DNA of 64,000 bases from Parahoeflea alexandrii. GTDB lineage: Bacteria; Pseudomonadota; Alphaproteobacteria; Rhizobiales; Rhizobiaceae. Shown piece by piece: positions 7,628 through 63,167 of the stretch; within the stretch, counting starts at the first letter, position 1, and each line of letters starts with the position of its first letter. The stretch lies in NCBI RefSeq assembly GCF_024105735.1, contig NZ_JAAAML010000001.1, positions 1,559,809 to 1,623,808 of the forward strand, written 5' to 3'. The notes under the pieces were generated by a model. That model had not been told where the DNA came from, made no database searches, and saw only the letters and a list, made by a program, of their open reading frames with translations. Position numbers and translations under genes: made by a program.

Positions 7628-8302
7628 TCAAGCGTCGACCAGTCCCAGCGCGGACTCGAACAGGGCGCGACCGTCGCTGCCGCCATGCGCGGGTTCGATC
7701 AGGTTTTCAGGATGCGGCATCATGCCCAGCACGTTGCCCGCCTTGTTGACGATGCCGGCGATGTTGTTGAGCGATCCGTTGGGGTTGGTGTCGGCGGTGT
7801 AGCGGAACGCGACCTGATTGCTGGCTTCGAGGTCGGCAAGCGTTCCGGGATCGGTGAAATAGTTGCCGTCGTGATGGGCCACCGGGCAGCGGATGACCTG
7901 GCCCTGGCTATAGCCTTGCGTGAACGCGGTCTTCGCGTTGGTGACTTCGAGCTTGACCTCGCGGCAGACGAATTTAAGCGAGGCGTTGCGCATCAGCGCG
8001 CCGGGCAGAAGGCCGGCTTCAAGCAGGATCTGGAAGCCGTTGCACACGCCGATGACGCGGGTGCCCTTTTCGGCCTTCTCGCGCACCGCCTGCATCACCG
8101 GCATGCGCGCGGCAATGGCGCCGCAGCGGAGATAATCGCCATAGGAAAAGCCGCCCGGGATGACGATCAGATCGACGTCGTCATCGATCGAAGTCTCGGT
8201 CTGCCAGATCGTTTGCGGGGCCTGGCCCGAAATCTTGGTCAGCGCCGCGATCATGTCGCGGTCGCGGTTGAGGCCGGGAAGCAGGATGACGGCGGCTTTC
8301 AT
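7628..8302 (-). CDS. purQ: Phosphoribosylformylglycinamidine synthase, glutaminase subunit
   Basis: The 224-residue class I glutamine amidotransferase supplies ammonia to PurL. It starts [17 protein letters not shown], has the oxyanion motif [13 protein letters not shown], the nucleophile [19 protein letters not shown] and the late catalytic HPEN segment. It is three bases from purS and 20-odd bases from purC through purS, forming a purC-purS-purQ operon. Length and all catalytic residues look normal. Confidence 0.97.
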
Positions 8303-8305
8303 GGC

Positions 8306-8548
8306 TCAGAGCACCTCGACCGCGAAATCCTCGATCACCGTATTGGCGAGCAGTTTTTCGCCCATGGCCTTGAGTTCGGCCTCGGCCTTGGCGCGGTCGG
8401 ATGTTTCAAGAACCACATCGAAGACCTTGCCCTGGCGGACGGAATCAACGCCGGAGAAGCCGAGACCGCCGAGCGCATGCTCGATGGCCTTGCCCTGCGG
8501 GTCGAGAACGCCGTTCTTGAGCGTTACCGTGACGCGTGCCTTGATCAT
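8306..8548 (-). CDS. purS: Phosphoribosylformylglycinamidine synthase subunit PurS
   Basis: This is an 80-residue PurS, the small subunit that bridges PurL and PurQ for ammonia transfer. It shows the family pattern KARVTVTLKNGVLDPQGKAIEHALGGLGF and ends with a TVIEDFAVEVL strand. It sits between purC (18-base gap) and purQ (three-base gap) on the same strand. The length is typical. Confidence 0.96.
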   Translation of the reverse strand: MIKARVTVTLKNGVLDPQGKAIEHALGGLGFSGVDSVRQGKVFDVVLETSDRAKAEAELKAMGEKLLANTVIEDFAVEVL

Positions 8549-8566
8549 TGACCCAACTCCTGAGGC

Positions 8567-9331
8567 TTACTTGACCAGAACCGGCCCGGTCGGGCGGTTC
8601 GGCTCGTTCTCGTTCATGATGCCAAGCCGGCGGGCGACTTCCTGGTAGGCCTCGACCAGATTGCCCAGATCGCGGCGGAAGACGTCCTTGTCGAGCTTCT
8701 GGTTGGTGTTGACGTCCCAGAGGCGGCAGGAATCGGGCGAGATCTCGTCGGCGACGACAATGCGCATCATGTCGCCTTCGAACAGGCGTCCGCATTCGAT
8801 CTTGAAATCGACCAGCTGGATGCCGACGCCGAGGAACAGGCCGGTGAGGAAGTCGTTGACGCGGATGGCAAGCGCCATGATGTCGTCGATTTCCTGGGGG
8901 CTGGCCCAGCCGAAGGCGGTGACGTGCTCTTCGGAAACCATCGGGTCGTCGAGCGCATCGGCCTTGTAGTAGAATTCGATGATCGAGCGCGGCAGCACGG
9001 TGCCTTCCTCGATGCCGAGGCGCTTGGCGAGCGAGCCGGCGGCAACGTTGCGCACGACGATCTCCAGCGGGATGATCTCGACTTCCTTGATCAGCTGCTC
9101 GCGCATGTTGATGCGCTTGATGAAGTGCGTCGGGATGCCGATCCGGTTGAGATGCGAGAATATGTATTCGGAGATGCGATTGTTGAGCACGCCCTTGCCG
9201 TCAACCACGTCGTGCTTCTTCTTGTTGAACGCGGTGGCGTCGTCCTTGAAGAACTGGATCAGCGTGCCTGGTTCTGGGCCTTCATAAAGAATCTTGGCCT
9301 TGCCTTCGTAGATACGGCGGCGACGGGTCAT
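8567..9331 (-). CDS. purC: SAICAR synthetase
   Basis: The 254-residue phosphoribosylaminoimidazole-succinocarboxamide synthase joins aspartate to CAIR using ATP. Signature segments are [12 protein letters not shown] at the N terminus, [45 protein letters not shown] and [12 protein letters not shown]. It is the first gene of purC-purS-purQ on the minus strand. A candidate promoter lies at 9399-9427. The length is normal and the start gives the usual [13 protein letters not shown]. Confidence 0.97.
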
Positions 9332-58564: not shown

Positions 58565-59854
58565 ATGACCGAACCAGACGCCGCAATTGCTCCCGCCGCC
58601 GCCAGGCCGTTCTCGACCTTCGAGCGCATGGTCGCCTGGCGCTACCTGCGCTCACGGCGGAAGGAAGCGTTCATTTCGGTGATTGCCGGGTTTTCCTTCG
58701 TTGGCATCATGCTCGGCGTTGCCACTCTGATCATCGTGATGGCGGTGATGAACGGGTTTCGCGGCGAACTGATCACCCGAATCCTGGGCATCAACGGGCA
58801 TATGGTGGTTCAGCCGATCGACCGGCCGCTCGACGATTACGCGGCGCTGGCAACCCGCTTCAAGGCGGTCGACGGGGTGCTGAACGCCATCCCGCTGGTC
58901 GAGGGCCAGACGCTCGCCTCGGGCGTTGGCGGGGCAGGGACAGGCGCTCTGGTGCGCGGCATCCGCGCCGAGGACCTGCAATCGATGAAGATCGTGTCCG
59001 ACAATATCCGCAGCGGTGACCTGGTTGGCTTTACTGCCGGGGAGGGCGTGCTTGTGGGCTCGCGCATGGCGCAGTCGCTGGGGCTCGGCGCCGGCGACAT
59101 GATCACGCTGGTGGCGCCGGAAGGCGACGTGACGCCGTTTGGCGTCAATCCGCGGGTCAAGGCCTATCCGATCTCCGGCATCTTCGAGGTCGGCATGTCG
59201 GAGTATGACGCCTCGATCATCTACATGCCGCTCGAGGAGGCGCAGCTCTATTTCAATGCCGAAGGCATGGTTCAGTCGATCGAGCTGTTCGTCGACAAGC
59301 CCGACGATATCGACAGCTTGCGGCCGCTGGTCGAGGCGGCGGCGGAACGGCAGGTGTTCATCACCGACTGGCGGCAGCGCAACCAGACCTTCTTCTCGGC
59401 GTTGCAGGTCGAGCGCAACGTCATGTTCATGATCCTGACGCTGATCATCCTGGTGGCCGCGCTCAACATCGTGTCGGGGCTGATCATGCTGGTCAAGGAC
59501 AAGGGGCGCGACATCGCGATTCTGAGGACCATGGGCGCGACATCGGGATCGGTGATGCGGATCTTCTTCATGACCGGGGCCGCGATCGGCGTGACCGGCA
59601 CCATCGCCGGATTTCTTCTGGGCGTCGTGGTCTGTCTCAACGTCGAAAGCATAAGGCAGTTCTTCTCCTGGCTGTCGGGCACCACGCTGTTCAACCCGGA
59701 ACTCTATTTCCTCAGCCAGTTGCCCGCCGACATGGATTCGGGCGAAACCATCATCGTGCTGGTGGTGGCGCTGGTTCTGTCCTTCATCGCGACCCTGATC
59801 CCGTCCTGGCGGGCGTCGAGGCTCGATCCGGTTCAGGCGCTGCGTTATGAGTGA
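58565..59854 (+). CDS. lolC: Lipoprotein-releasing system permease
   Basis: The 429-residue FtsX/LolC-E type membrane protein has a first helix ([34 protein letters not shown]), a large periplasmic domain of about 220 residues, and three C-terminal helices around residues 285-420. [48 protein letters not shown] is the coupling segment. With LolD it extracts lipoproteins from the inner membrane. Only one permease gene is present, as is common in alphaproteobacteria, so it likely works as a homodimer. It overlaps lolD by eight bases. Confidence 0.95.
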
Positions 59855-60548
59855 TCGCATGGGCACAGGCTCGCACCCGGTTCTCCAGCTGTCCGGGGTG
59901 GGGCGCCACTTCCTGCAGGGCGAGAACCAGATCTCGATCCTCGATGGCGCGGACTTCACGCTTCACGCCGGCGAAACGGTTGCGCTGGTGGCACCCTCAG
60001 GCACCGGCAAATCGACGCTGCTGCACCTGGCCGGCCTGCTCGAGCATCCCGACGAGGGCGACGTGCTGGTCAATGGCGTATCCTGTGCAGGGCTGCCGGA
60101 CGACCGCCGGACGGCGATCCGCCGCTCGGAGATCGGCTTCGTCTACCAGTTTCATCATCTGCTGCCGGAATTTTCGGCGCTTGAAAACATCATGATGCCG
60201 CAGCTGATTTCCGGCTTGCCCAAAGCCGACGCCAGGGAACGTGCCGAGCAATTGCTCGACTACATGCGCATCGGCCACCGTGCTGACCACCGGCCGGCCG
60301 AACTGTCAGGCGGCGAGCAGCAGCGCGTGGCGATCGCCCGCGCGGTGGCCAACGCGCCGCTGGTGTTGCTTGCGGACGAACCCACCGGCAATCTCGACCC
60401 GGAAACCGCCGGCTACGTGTTCGAGGCGCTCGATGCGCTGGTGCGCCAGTCGGGCCTCTCCGCCGTCATCGCCACCCACAACCACGACCTCGCCAGCCTG
60501 ATGAACCGCCGGGTGACGCTGCATGACGGCAAGGTGGTGGAGGTTTAG
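59847..60548 (+). CDS. lolD: Lipoprotein-releasing system ATP-binding protein
   Basis: The 233-residue ABC ATPase shows Walker [11 protein letters not shown]-loop [12 protein letters not shown], signature [14 protein letters not shown], Walker [15 protein letters not shown] and the switch histidine in [16 protein letters not shown] is typical of LolD. It starts inside lolC. It is the last gene of the conserved block before the AT-richer accessory region. Confidence 0.96.
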
Positions 60549-60733
60549 GGGGGGCGGCTGGTGGTGCTGTCTGGCTCTTAGCCGGCGCTCGCGATGGCCG
60601 CAGCGAATGCCCTAAAGGTATGCTCTTTGACGGATGCGCCGTTCGTCATGAATGGCTGCAATGCGCTGGAAGTGAGCTTGCAGTAGTTCGGTTCTTTTTC
60701 CCAAAGCCGCGGTGTTTTTCGATTAGAAGCGAA

Positions 60734-62041
60734 TCATTGTGAGCCAAAGGGATTTCGTAGATGACTTAGAACCTGACCTAGAGAGTGGTTTTGTTGTCTT
60801 CGACTGCGGTGGTCTGTGAGGAGGTTCGCTCGCTTGAGCTTGATTTCAATGGCCTGCTTCGAAGTTCCAAATTGGTCCGACAACTCAGCTAACATTCGAT
60901 TGTAGGGAAGGTAGTTACAAGGCTGGTCGTCAACGAAAATATATCCAAAGGCTCTGCCATAAGTCTCGAACTTATTCCTTAGTGCGGCTACTGCTTCTAG
61001 AAATTGCGCCTCAGGCAGTAGCAACATTGAAGCGAATAGATTGGCCTGATACTCAAGTCGCTCATAATTGAAGGCTTCGTCTTTCTTCACCTCCTCATAA
61101 ATGTCTTGCTCTACAATGTACTCCGACCGAAGGTACTTATCGTGCCGTAGGACAAAGTGACCAATTTCATGGGCAACTGTGAACCTCTCTCGGTGTCGGT
61201 TGCCATGTTGATTGATTTCTATCGACCTATTGCCGAAATTAGCAGACCCTAGGATTGTATCGCCATCTGCGTCCTGAAGCGTTCGTTCCGAATACGCTAA
61301 TTTCAGATTCAACACTCTGCAGATTTGCTCGACATCAACTTCGCCGCAGCTATAACTAATAAGAGACAATGCGTTTTGGGCGGCATCTTGGATTTTTATA
61401 TCTGGCAAGAATGCTACGTAACTAGCCGTTTGATCAGTATTGTCAGCTTGTTCGTCAGTCGAACTTGATTCAAAACTGCGCAGCATCTGATCAAGCGAAC
61501 CGAAATAGCGACCATTGATGCAAGCGGCAAACTTGAGCGTCTTTGGCTTCCGGTTGCCGGTAAAAATTTGGTTTTGAATGAATCGGTTCTCTGGCCACGC
61601 TCCAACTGCCCGATCGACAACCACGTCGATTCCATTTTCGTCGAACTTTACAATTCCGATACCTCTATTTTTCGTAAAACTCTCAGCGCCAGACTGCAAT
61701 CTGGATGAGATGACCACGAGGGGCTTGGCAGCTTGCCCAAATACGCTTCTGACTTGGTCAGAGAAAACTCTGAGATTTCTATCCTCGACTGATCTTTGGT
61801 GGTTCTTGCATTCAAATACCACATACACATGAGGGTCGGCGCCTCCTTGTCGGCGGACTTCCACTACAACGTCAAAATTGACATCCGCTTCACGGTCTCT
61901 GCAGTAGTAGTTAGGTTTCTTGCGAACTGTGCAGCAGTTAGCCGGATAGATATCAAAAACCAGTTCATTGCGTTTGAATTGATCAAGCAGGTAGTCATAA
62001 AGCTTGTCTTCTAGCCTATTTCCCTTCTCGGTGGTGTTCAT
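60734..62041 (-). CDS. PD-(D/E)XK-like nuclease domain fused to ImmA/IrrE-type metallopeptidase
   Basis: The 435-residue protein is unlike its neighbours in base use (AT-richer, many rare-type codons). Residues 1-145 fit a restriction-endonuclease-like domain: helix GNRLEDKLYDYLLDQF, NFDVVVEV (Asp57) and FECK (Glu77-x-Lys79), a D-x(19)-E-x-K pattern, then a KPLVVISSRLQ strand. Residues 240-345 are an ImmA/IrrE (DUF955) zinc peptidase: VAHEIGHFVLRH (HEXXH 291-295) with the third ligand in LEYQANLFASMLLLP (Glu330). It is followed by helical segments. ATG at 62041 has AAGGG eight bases upstream; the frame upstream to 62179 lacks support. A defence or DNA-damage role is possible. Confidence 0.7.
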   Translation of the reverse strand: MNTTEKGNRLEDKLYDYLLDQFKRNELVFDIYPANCCTVRKKPNYYCRDREADVNFDVVVEVRRQGGADPHVYVVFECKNHQRSVEDRNLRVFSDQVRSVFGQAAKPLVVISSRLQSGAESFTKNRGIGIVKFDENGIDVVVDRAVGAWPENRFIQNQIFTGNRKPKTLKFAACINGRYFGSLDQMLRSFESSSTDEQADNTDQTASYVAFLPDIKIQDAAQNALSLISYSCGEVDVEQICRVLNLKLAYSERTLQDADGDTILGSANFGNRSIEINQHGNRHRERFTVAHEIGHFVLRHDKYLRSEYIVEQDIYEEVKKDEAFNYERLEYQANLFASMLLLPEAQFLEAVAALRNKFETYGRAFGYIFVDDQPCNYLPYNRMLAELSDQFGTSKQAIEIKLKRANLLTDHRSRRQQNHSLGQVLSHLRNPFGSQ

Positions 62042-62183
62042 GGCTTGCCCTTCGGCTTTTGCAACTAGTGAAGGATAGGCATCCATTTCGCCCGTGCAAG
62101 CAACAAAGCGTAACAGGTACCTTCGGTGAATGTCGCCGTGTCCCAGTCGCGACCTTCTTTTTTTATCCGTATGGAGCAACTAG

Positions 62184-62387
62184 CCTGCACCCGAAGCGCT
62201 TGATGACCGTATCCTCTTTGGGCTCGGATCGGTCTTTGCCATCGACCGCGCGGATATCTCAAAGGCCTGTTGTGCTGATCTTGATGTGTACTACAGCGAA
62301 AGCCTGTTCCTCGCCGATTCCAGGCTTAAGGCGTCGTCAGGCGTACGTAGGATAAGCGTCGAGCTCACATCCATTCGTCAACGATAA
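62184..62387 (+). pseudogene. Possible 3' remnant of a gene
   Basis: An open frame from 62184 to a TAA at 62385-62387 reads DDRILFGLGSVFAIDRADIS and continues to SESLFLADSRLKASSG. The residue mix looks protein-like, but a TAG lies just upstream and no start codon with a ribosome-binding site is present. If real, it is a truncated piece of a longer gene. I recognise no family; a polysaccharide pyruvyltransferase-like flavour is only an impression. The rest of 62042-62431 shows nothing else I can support. Confidence 0.25.
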
Positions 62388-62431
62388 TCAAGTCCCGACC
62401 CATCACCACATTCCCCTACCTAATCCGCACA

Positions 62432-62462
62432 CAAAAAAGCACGGCGGGTTTCCCCGCCGTGC
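62432..62462 (-). terminator. Terminator of the alpha/beta hydrolase gene
   Basis: Perfect 10-bp stem GCACGGCGGG/CCCGCCGTGC (62439-62448, 62453-62462), loop TTTC. On the minus strand it is followed by six T residues. It lies 27 bases after the stop of the hydrolase at 62490. Confidence 0.85.
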
Positions 62463-62489
62463 CTCTCGCATTCATCCTCGTTGAAACAC

Positions 62490-63167
62490 TCAGCGCAGCC
62501 GCTTGGCCGCCGTCTCCGGCACCAGTTCGCCCGCAAGACGGCGATCCAGGTAGTCTTCGCATTCTTCCATCAGTTCGTCGACCTTGCCGGTGAAGAAGTG
62601 GTTGGCGCCTTGCATGGTCTTCTGGGTGATGAGGATGCCCTTCTGCAGCTTGAGCTTCTCGACCAGGCCGTTGACGTCCTTTTCGGGCGCCACCTTGTCG
62701 GCGTCGCCATGGATGATCAGGCCCGAGGACGGGCAGGGGGCGAGGAACGAGAAGTCATAGGTGTTGGGCTGCGGCGCGATCGAGAAGAAGCCCTCGATCT
62801 CGGGGCGGCGCATCAGAAGCTGCATGCCGATCCAGGCGCCGAAGGAATAGCCTGCCACCCAGCAGCTCTTTGAATCCGGATGCAGGCTCTGCACCCAGTC
62901 GAGTGCTGCGGCGGCATCGGAAAGTTCGCCGGCGCCGTGGTCGAAATCGCCCTGGCTGCGGCCGATCGAGCGGAAATTGAATCTGAGCGTCGTAAACCCG
63001 CGCTGCTGGAACATGTAGAACAGCTGGTAGACGATCTGGTTGTTCATGGTGCCGCCGAACTGCGGGTGCGGATGCAGCACGATGGCGATCGGCGCGTTCT
63101 TTTCCTTGCCCGGCTGATAGCGGCCTTCGAGACGACCGGCGGGTCCGTTGAAAATGACTTCAGGCAT
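62490..63167 (-). CDS. Alpha/beta hydrolase (dienelactone hydrolase-like)
   Basis: The 225-residue protein has AIVLHPHPQFGGTMNNQIVYQLFYMFQQRGFTTLRFNFRSIGRSQGDFDHG, then WVAGYSFGAWIGMQLL (nucleophile GYSFG), LIIHGDADKVAPE (Asp) and QGANHFFTGKVDEL (His). This set is typical of the small alpha/beta hydrolases common in alphaproteobacteria next to the suf/cysteine desulfurase genes. The substrate is unknown. It is divergent from the cysteine desulfurase gene. Confidence 0.92.
   Translation of the reverse strand: MPEVIFNGPAGRLEGRYQPGKEKNAPIAIVLHPHPQFGGTMNNQIVYQLFYMFQQRGFTTLRFNFRSIGRSQGDFDHGAGELSDAAAALDWVQSLHPDSKSCWVAGYSFGAWIGMQLLMRRPEIEGFFSIAPQPNTYDFSFLAPCPSSGLIIHGDADKVAPEKDVNGLVEKLKLQKGILITQKTMQGANHFFTGKVDELMEECEDYLDRRLAGELVPETAAKRLR

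What the first reader, a model, noticed from the sequence alone, without database searches (positions are those of the whole stretch)
60734..62041. Nuclease-like domain fused to an ImmA/IrrE peptidase in an AT-richer insertion
One gene combines a D-x19-E-x-K restriction-type nuclease core with a complete HEXXH peptidase site. Peptidases of this class cleave repressors or regulators after a stress signal. Having the nuclease in the same chain suggests a single-protein switch in which proteolysis (of itself or of a regulator) could release or limit nuclease activity. The base composition differs from every neighbour, so the gene was probably acquired. I do not know of a characterised system with this exact architecture.
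Basis: partly seen in the sequence, partly recalled or inferred. Interest (0 to 1): 0.75.

Follow-up and report, generated by a model that had tools for sequence, protein, structure and literature searches.

The report
One-gene nuclease-peptidase, probably phage defence
A foreign, single-gene insert encodes a DNA-cutting-type domain joined to a protein-cutting domain, with both active sites preserved in distant relatives; it most likely protects the bacterium from viruses and may work as a self-contained switch.

The parts
60734..62041 (-). 435-aa gene: nuclease fold + ImmA/IrrE (M78) peptidase
   Evidence: relatives start at the same residue
61607..62041 (-). residues 1-145: PD-(D/E)XK nuclease domain (Mrr/Can2/NucS-like)
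61871..61873 (-). D57, first acidic catalytic residue (role inferred from the superfamily)
   Evidence: invariant in 24 of 24 rows, 23 distinct sequences
61805..61813 (-). E77-C78-K79 of the nuclease core
   Evidence: invariant in 24 of 24 rows, 23 distinct sequences
61406..61606 (-). residues 146-212: variable, largely disordered linker (candidate cleavage region, inferred)
   Evidence: pLDDT below 50 at 146-172 and 192-207; mean column identity 0.28 against 0.45 and 0.46 for the domains
60806..61405 (-). residues 213-412: ImmA/IrrE peptidase domain with a C-terminal helix pair
61157..61171 (-). H291-E292-x-x-H295 zinc-binding motif
   Evidence: invariant in 24 of 24 rows; third ligand probably E330, invariant too (its role is recalled from the family)
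60549..62430 (.). AT-rich insert between conserved flanks (ends approximate); holds this one gene
   Evidence: comparison with congeners; GC profile
59847..60548 (+). left flank: lolD-like ABC transporter ATPase gene (name recalled from sequence)
   Evidence: found in 14 of 14 congener stretches fetched
62490..63167 (-). right flank: alpha/beta-hydrolase-like gene (name recalled from sequence), with a terminator-like stretch at about 62430-62465
   Evidence: found in 18 of 18 genomes of the genus, own included, one of them only as a 34-bp match

Best explanation
A horizontally acquired, stand-alone anti-phage (or phage-carried exclusion) protein. Shown: one chain carries a predicted PD-(D/E)XK nuclease fold and an ImmA/IrrE zinc-peptidase fold with both active sites under strong constraint, and it sits in a locus where congeners carry other defence-type genes. 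Inferred: the nuclease is the effector and is kept quiet until an infection cue, probably abnormal DNA as for the related peptidases PprI and CapP, activates the peptidase; the peptidase then cuts an exposed stretch, most simply the linker at residues 146-212 in cis or between protomers, and so releases or reshapes the nuclease, which degrades phage and/or host DNA.
For: Folds of both domains. Invariance of E11, D57, E77, K79, H291, E292, H295 and E330 in 23 distinct full-length sequences, so neither domain looks like a passenger. In a 398-genome sample scanned with the N-domain, 6 of the 7 strong matches are this fusion or pieces of it. The insert interval is a variable locus in the genus: of 14 congeners examined, 5 empty and 9 with other cargo, 4 of the 9 with cargo matching defence models. 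Two homologues lie directly downstream of defence-type reverse transcriptases: L041 (Drt6/Drt4-type; this homologue is itself broken) and L076 (Drt2-type, 16 bp between stop and start). Two lie in phage contigs of T7-like gene content between DNA polymerase and head-tail adaptor genes. GC is lower than the flanks in 29 of 30 loci. Precedents: proteolytically activated pro-nucleases in Hachiman and AVAST (PMC12799240, abstract and passages); ssDNA-activated PprI and CapP (PMC10904395, passages).
Against: No functional data. The linker has no motif conserved across the whole family; its KSLKFSA-like stretch is confined to the closer members. PprI needs an arginine of its peptidase domain and two of its GAF-like domain for ssDNA activation; only 31 residues follow the last confident helix here (395-404), too few for such a domain of about 100 residues. 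One strong N-domain match (G473, L035) shows no peptidase; it may be a remnant beside a transposase-like ORF or a stand-alone form. Many homologues whose surroundings I could read lie alone among housekeeping-type genes rather than in large defence islands. Of the 9 occupied congener intervals, 3 gave no defence match (L060, L061, L065) and 2 were not scanned (L064, L069). A phage-borne role in host takeover is not excluded.
Confidence: 0.42

Rival explanations
1. Two loosely coupled activities: a modification- or structure-dependent DNase (Mrr/type IV-like) whose fused peptidase destroys a phage inhibitor or a distant repressor; no self-cleavage.
For: Mrr_cat relationship. PprI, CapP and ImmA, as described in the passages read, each cut another protein, a repressor (PMC10904395; PMC2701414).
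Against: No repressor gene beside the window gene, and no family other than ABC ATPases shared by three or more of the loci compared.
Confidence: 0.23
2. The peptidase is the effector (cuts an essential host or phage protein, as the phage-exclusion protease Lit cuts EF-Tu) and the nuclease domain is a DNA sensor or targeting module.
For: PprI senses ssDNA partly through its GAF-like domain, outside the peptidase fold. The nuclease domain could stand in for the missing sensor. Lit precedent (PMC3506569, passage).
Against: The full D/E/K triad plus E11 is invariant; a pure sensor would be free to lose catalysis.
Confidence: 0.15
3. A mobile-element or phage gene used for host takeover, counter-defence or element maintenance (ArdC-like logic) that became stranded in chromosomes.
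For: Five loci in viral contigs, with clear phage genes beside it in L042, L043 and L044; polyvalent proteins join zincin peptidases to DNA-acting domains (PMC5512222, passages); frequent decay.
Against: Retained with intact active sites as a lone chromosomal gene in unrelated species; the Pfam scan lists no ArdC N-domain; the host locus carries defence-type cargo in congeners.
Confidence: 0.12
4. Artefact: chance motif, or a gene-prediction or assembly fusion of two genes.
For: The loose nuclease motif is common by chance. In L034 the two parts lie in two overlapping ORFs.
Confidence: 0.02

Closest known systems
ImmA/IrrE (M78, COG2856) peptidases: PprI/IrrE, CapP, ImmA
   Different: Nuclease domain in front; no room for a GAF-like domain behind; no adjacent HTH repressor gene in the window
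Mrr-type / Can2-Card1 / NucS-EndoMS PD-(D/E)XK nucleases
   Same: Predicted fold and D, E-x-K triad
   Different: The Pfam scan lists no CARF, NucS N-terminal or Mrr winged-helix partner; the partner is a peptidase
Nuclease-protease pairs of Hachiman, AVAST and Canu (PMC12799240; abstract and passages seen)
   Same: Defence pairing of a nuclease with a protease
   Different: There an MBL-fold nuclease and a trypsin- or caspase-type protease, the nuclease always in a separate gene; here a PD-(D/E)XK nuclease and a zinc peptidase in one chain
PD-lambda-2 of E. coli (PMC9519451; passages seen)
   Same: An Xre-peptidase fusion in a demonstrated anti-phage system; I take its peptidase to be the ImmA/IrrE one that the paper's discussion lists
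   Different: Peptidase fused to an Xre HTH in a three-gene HigBA-like system; no nuclease domain in that fusion as described
ArdC and polyvalent zincin proteins (PMC5512222; passages seen)
   Same: Zincin peptidase fused to DNA-acting domains on mobile elements; autoproteolysis proposed there
   Different: N-terminal domain is a ssDNA-binding ArdC-N domain, not a nuclease

Membership tests
Peptidase_M78 / ImmA-IrrE | Pfam PF06114 above curated cut-off | tested here: met
   62.5 bits, cut-off 22
Peptidase_M78 / ImmA-IrrE | HEXXH plus third acidic ligand | tested here: met
   H291, E292, H295, E330 invariant in 24 of 24 rows, 23 distinct; E330 as ligand is inferred
ImmA/PprI/CapP repressor-cleaving pairs | Adjacent HTH repressor substrate gene | tested here: not met
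   The window's neighbours are lolD-like and hydrolase-like genes; homologues' neighbours share no such family in three or more loci
ImmA/PprI/CapP repressor-cleaving pairs | C-terminal GAF-like sensor domain as in PprI | tested here: not met
   31 residues follow the last confident helix (395-404), the last 21 of them at pLDDT under 50; PprI's GAF-like domain is residues 177-277
PD-(D/E)XK nuclease superfamily | Core fold | tested here: met
PD-(D/E)XK nuclease superfamily | D, (D/E)-x-K catalytic residues | tested here: met
   D57, E77, K79 invariant in 24 of 24 rows, 23 distinct
PD-(D/E)XK nuclease superfamily | Nuclease activity | not testable with these tools
   no bench work
Mrr_cat (PF04471) | Above curated cut-off | tested here: inconclusive
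   18.7-20.1 bits against 21 for the window protein; 26 of 26 N-domains match at E<=1, best 6e-9
Can2/Card1 CARF nucleases | CARF sensor domain | tested here: not met
   No CARF family in the Pfam scan, limit E 10
Hachiman/AVAST/Canu nuclease-protease pairs | MBL-fold nuclease in its own gene with a trypsin- or caspase-type protease | tested here: not met
   Different families and folds, one chain
ArdC antirestriction proteins | ArdC N-terminal ssDNA-binding domain | tested here: not met
   Absent from the Pfam scan, limit E 10
Anti-phage defence systems | Demonstrated phage protection | not tested
   Needs plating assays
Anti-phage defence systems | Location in a locus with other defence genes | tested here: met
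   In congeners, 4 of 9 occupied intervals carry cargo matching PADLOC models; 2 of the 9 were not scanned. The window's own interval holds this gene alone

The most novel reading that the evidence does not exclude
A one-polypeptide pro-nuclease: a PD-(D/E)XK DNase with its own ImmA/IrrE activating peptidase in the chain, triggered by infection-associated DNA and released by self-cleavage in the linker, so that sensing, proteolytic switching and killing all fit in one 435-aa, single-gene mobile defence unit.
Probability: 0.28. Interest if true: 0.85.

Novelty: new variant of a known kind. Interest (0 to 1): 0.6.

Why it matters
Proteolytic activation of nucleases has recently been described in bacterial immunity, but with the nuclease in a gene of its own (PMC12799240). 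Here both catalytic centres are kept intact in one small chain across two phyla. If the peptidase gates the nuclease, this would be a very compact self-contained immune switch and a tractable model for how ImmA/IrrE peptidases sense trouble. The lolD-hydrolase interval also offers a place to look for further single-gene defence cargo in this genus.

Tried and rejected
Motif alone: the D-x19-E-x-K argument was rejected as evidence because loose versions appear in 69% of shuffles; the conclusion rests on fold and conservation.

Sequence profile of the N-domain against PDB sequences: no nuclease match (one hit, a ribosomal protein at E 0.47). The full-length profile found CapP, PprI and IrrE, plus NucS only at E 0.95. 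The nuclease assignment therefore rests on Mrr_cat and on predicted folds.

Among the 50 rows shown of the BFVD viral structures, names and lengths point to single-domain IrrE-type or nuclease proteins and none stood out as the same fusion. Literature searches for the architecture surfaced no paper describing it, but the lists were capped (20 of 584, 20 of 48, 15 of 102) and I saw listings plus passages of a few papers; PMC10853773 (passages) had nothing relevant. sought relatives (PprI, CapP, RmrA).

Phage origin of the Acinetobacter 'phage' record L037: rejected, its annotated neighbours are bacterial housekeeping genes.

Natural split-gene version in L034/L082: considered; the two ORFs overlap in different frames and I read it as a frame-broken copy, not as proof of action in trans.

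A recurrent partner was sought by all-against-all comparison of the ORFs in the loci held at that time; apart from the family itself and the window's own overlapping copies, only ABC ATPases were shared by three or more loci. L073-L083 came later and were read by eye, and part of the gene lists was cut from view. Neighbours sent to PADLOC were 10 proteins picked by eye, so that result is not an enrichment test; 4 of the 10 had no match. Of the congener cargo, 10 ORFs from 7 intervals were sent; the cargo of L064 and L069 and the further ORFs of L058, L059, L063, L065 and L071 were not. Three of the 17 other congeners (G593, G595, G598) were left out because their match was fragmentary or at a contig end. 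Loci left out of the GC count: fragments, contig-edge pieces and duplicates (such as L012, L016, L017, L033, L039, L040, L075, L083, L084).

Full report
What is there. The gene at 60734-62041 on the minus strand encodes 435 residues. Relatives begin at the same residue, with ATG or GTG, so the 481-aa TTG ORF listed mechanically is not the likely gene. It is the only match in its own 4.9-Mb genome.

Is it more than chance? The nuclease motif alone is not: D-x(8-30)-[DE]-x-K is present in 69% of shuffles of the first 145 residues; HEXXH is in 1.4% of shuffles. Homology decides. Pfam gives Peptidase_M78 at E 4e-17 and Mrr_cat at E 0.002, just below its curated cut-off; 26 of 26 N-domains of the family, the window's included, match Mrr_cat at E<=1, best 6e-9. 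PADLOC's best model is CapP at 3e-22.

Conservation. In 24 full-length rows (the window protein plus 23; L084 equals L003 after the first residue, so 23 distinct), 21 of 435 positions are invariant. They include E11, D57, E77, K79, K106, H291, E292, H295 and E330. Identity to the window protein falls to 21%. The linker is less conserved (mean column identity 0.28) than the domains (0.45 and 0.46); the tail has 0.12. Both sites are thus maintained together.

Distribution. Genome contigs: 16 loci. Viral contigs: 5. plasmids: 6 records, 2 of them covering at least 80% of the query. phages: 3 records, 2 covering at least 80%, one of which I inspected and take to be bacterial DNA. Samples of whole genomes: family 37 of 199 with any match, of which 6 hold a full-length single reading frame (the window's own genome included), 1 holds the gene in two pieces, and 30 match the peptidase part only. 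Phylum 7 of 398 at E<=1e-20, 4 of them full-length, own included. Class 2 of 385 at E<=1e-25, own included. Order of another carrier, G450: 1 of 247, G450 itself. In the genus, 5 of 18 have a match but only the window's genome has the full protein; the other four match the peptidase part. In a 398-genome sample scanned with the N-domain alone, 12 genomes match at E<=1e-6: 7 strongly (over 100 bits), of which 6 are the fusion or pieces of it and one (G473) shows no peptidase, lies beside a transposase-like ORF and may be a remnant; and 5 weakly (8e-9 to 1e-6), in ORFs that I did not examine. Full-length members occur in named Alpha- and Gammaproteobacteria and on a Spirosoma plasmid (Bacteroidota).

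Broken copies. Of the 16 loci, five have the gene interrupted or reduced to a remnant (L002, L005, L011, L014, L017); L016 stops matching after residue 66, but 144 bp from a contig end, and L012 runs off a contig. The viral-contig copy L041, G049, G276 and the Rhizobium plasmid copy L039 (N-part missing, transposase annotated upstream) are broken too. Sequencing errors in draft assemblies may explain some.

Foreign composition is a property of the family: the gene is AT-richer than its flanks in 29 of the 30 loci counted, median 11 GC points; the exception is L082. In the window no other region is as AT-rich.

The locus. The flanking genes, lolD-like and hydrolase-like, are conserved in the genus, and the insert lies between the lolD stop and the hydrolase's terminator-like stretch (about 60549-62430), with no clear repeat at its ends. 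Fourteen of the 17 other congeners were fetched, all with both flanks. The interval is 108-488 bp with no ORF of 60 aa or more listed in five; in nine it is 1.0-5.9 kb and carries other genes. Of ten cargo ORFs from seven of the nine intervals, four match PADLOC: PifA (KAP NTPase, 4e-88, L059), PDC-S15 (FRG domain, 1e-94, L063), DitA (5e-55, L071, next to ORFs that I read as an IS3-type transposase) and, more weakly, a Fic protein (PDC-S04, 3e-9, L058). The other six have no PADLOC match, one of them being a GGDEF protein. The intervals of L064 and L069 were not scanned. This is the strongest contextual support for a defence role, and it is support by position only.

Neighbours elsewhere. No family other than ABC ATPases was shared by three or more loci. 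Many homologues stand alone between housekeeping-type genes (read by eye, and part was cut from view). By-eye choices sent to PADLOC gave a Drt6/Drt4-type reverse transcriptase upstream of the broken copy in L041 (99 bp or so away) and a Drt2-type one directly upstream in L076, a HEC-06/Orf5 (DUF262-like, recalled) protein in L009, and PDC-S73 in L038, besides weaker matches for two more L076 proteins; 4 of the 10 proteins had none. In L076 the reading frame starts 16 bp after the reverse-transcriptase stop, with a purine-rich ribosome-site-like stretch between, which suggests an operon. Two viral contigs of about 43 kb (L043, L044) have what I recognise as T7-like gene content: primase-helicase, DNA polymerase, the gene, head-tail adaptor. 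L042 has an endolysin nearby; L045's scanned neighbour is a DNA ligase.

Mechanism. Established for relatives: PprI is activated by ssDNA and cuts the repressor DdrO; CapP likewise cuts CapH (PMC10904395, passages). An Xre-peptidase fusion is part of the phage-defence system PD-lambda-2, and the paper lists an ImmA/IrrE peptidase among its defence domains (PMC9519451, passages). Separately encoded pro-nucleases are switched on by proteases in Hachiman and AVAST (PMC12799240, abstract and passages). COG2856 peptidases usually partner with Xre repressors (PMC2701414, passages). Here there is no repressor gene beside the window's gene and no room for a GAF-like domain behind the peptidase, and the nuclease stands in front. 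The most economical reading is that the peptidase controls the nuclease in the same chain; that step is inferred. That the nuclease acts on DNA is inferred from the fold family. The trigger is inferred from PprI and CapP, with the caveat that two of the three arginines PprI needs lie in its GAF-like domain.

Verdict. Real, acquired and conserved; most likely a single-gene anti-phage factor. The self-contained switch is a good hypothesis, not a result.

Noticed in passing
L058 3537-3767 and 6648-7349; L059 7012-7707 and 9338-9573: Two congeners with cargo in the lolD-hydrolase interval carry a second, partial copy (about 230-240 bp) of the 3' end of lolD, as if cargo lands at the lolD 3' end and duplicates it. 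The window has no such second copy.
   Followed up: partly
L060 921-1955 and 2091-2927; L061 1228-1956 and 1983-2795; L058 2577-3422: Other AT-richer cargo ORFs in the same interval have no Pfam or PADLOC match at E 0.01; candidates for unknown single- or two-gene units.
   Followed up: no
L076 2474-16275: Island with PP2C-like and kinase-like ORFs (the latter a weak PD-T4-6 match), a Drt2-type reverse transcriptase, the nuclease-peptidase homologue, an ORF matching the N-terminus of type IIG enzymes, and a probable Tn3-type transposase (PP2C and Tn3 names recalled from sequence).
   Followed up: partly
L043 and L044, about 8001-9287: Phage contigs from two IMG/VR records carry the gene at the same place, between DNA polymerase and head-tail adaptor genes.
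   Followed up: partly
L037 (CAKLQH020000007.1): A record filed as 'Acinetobacter phage MD-2021a' has bacterial housekeeping genes around the match and looks like bacterial chromosome.
   Followed up: no
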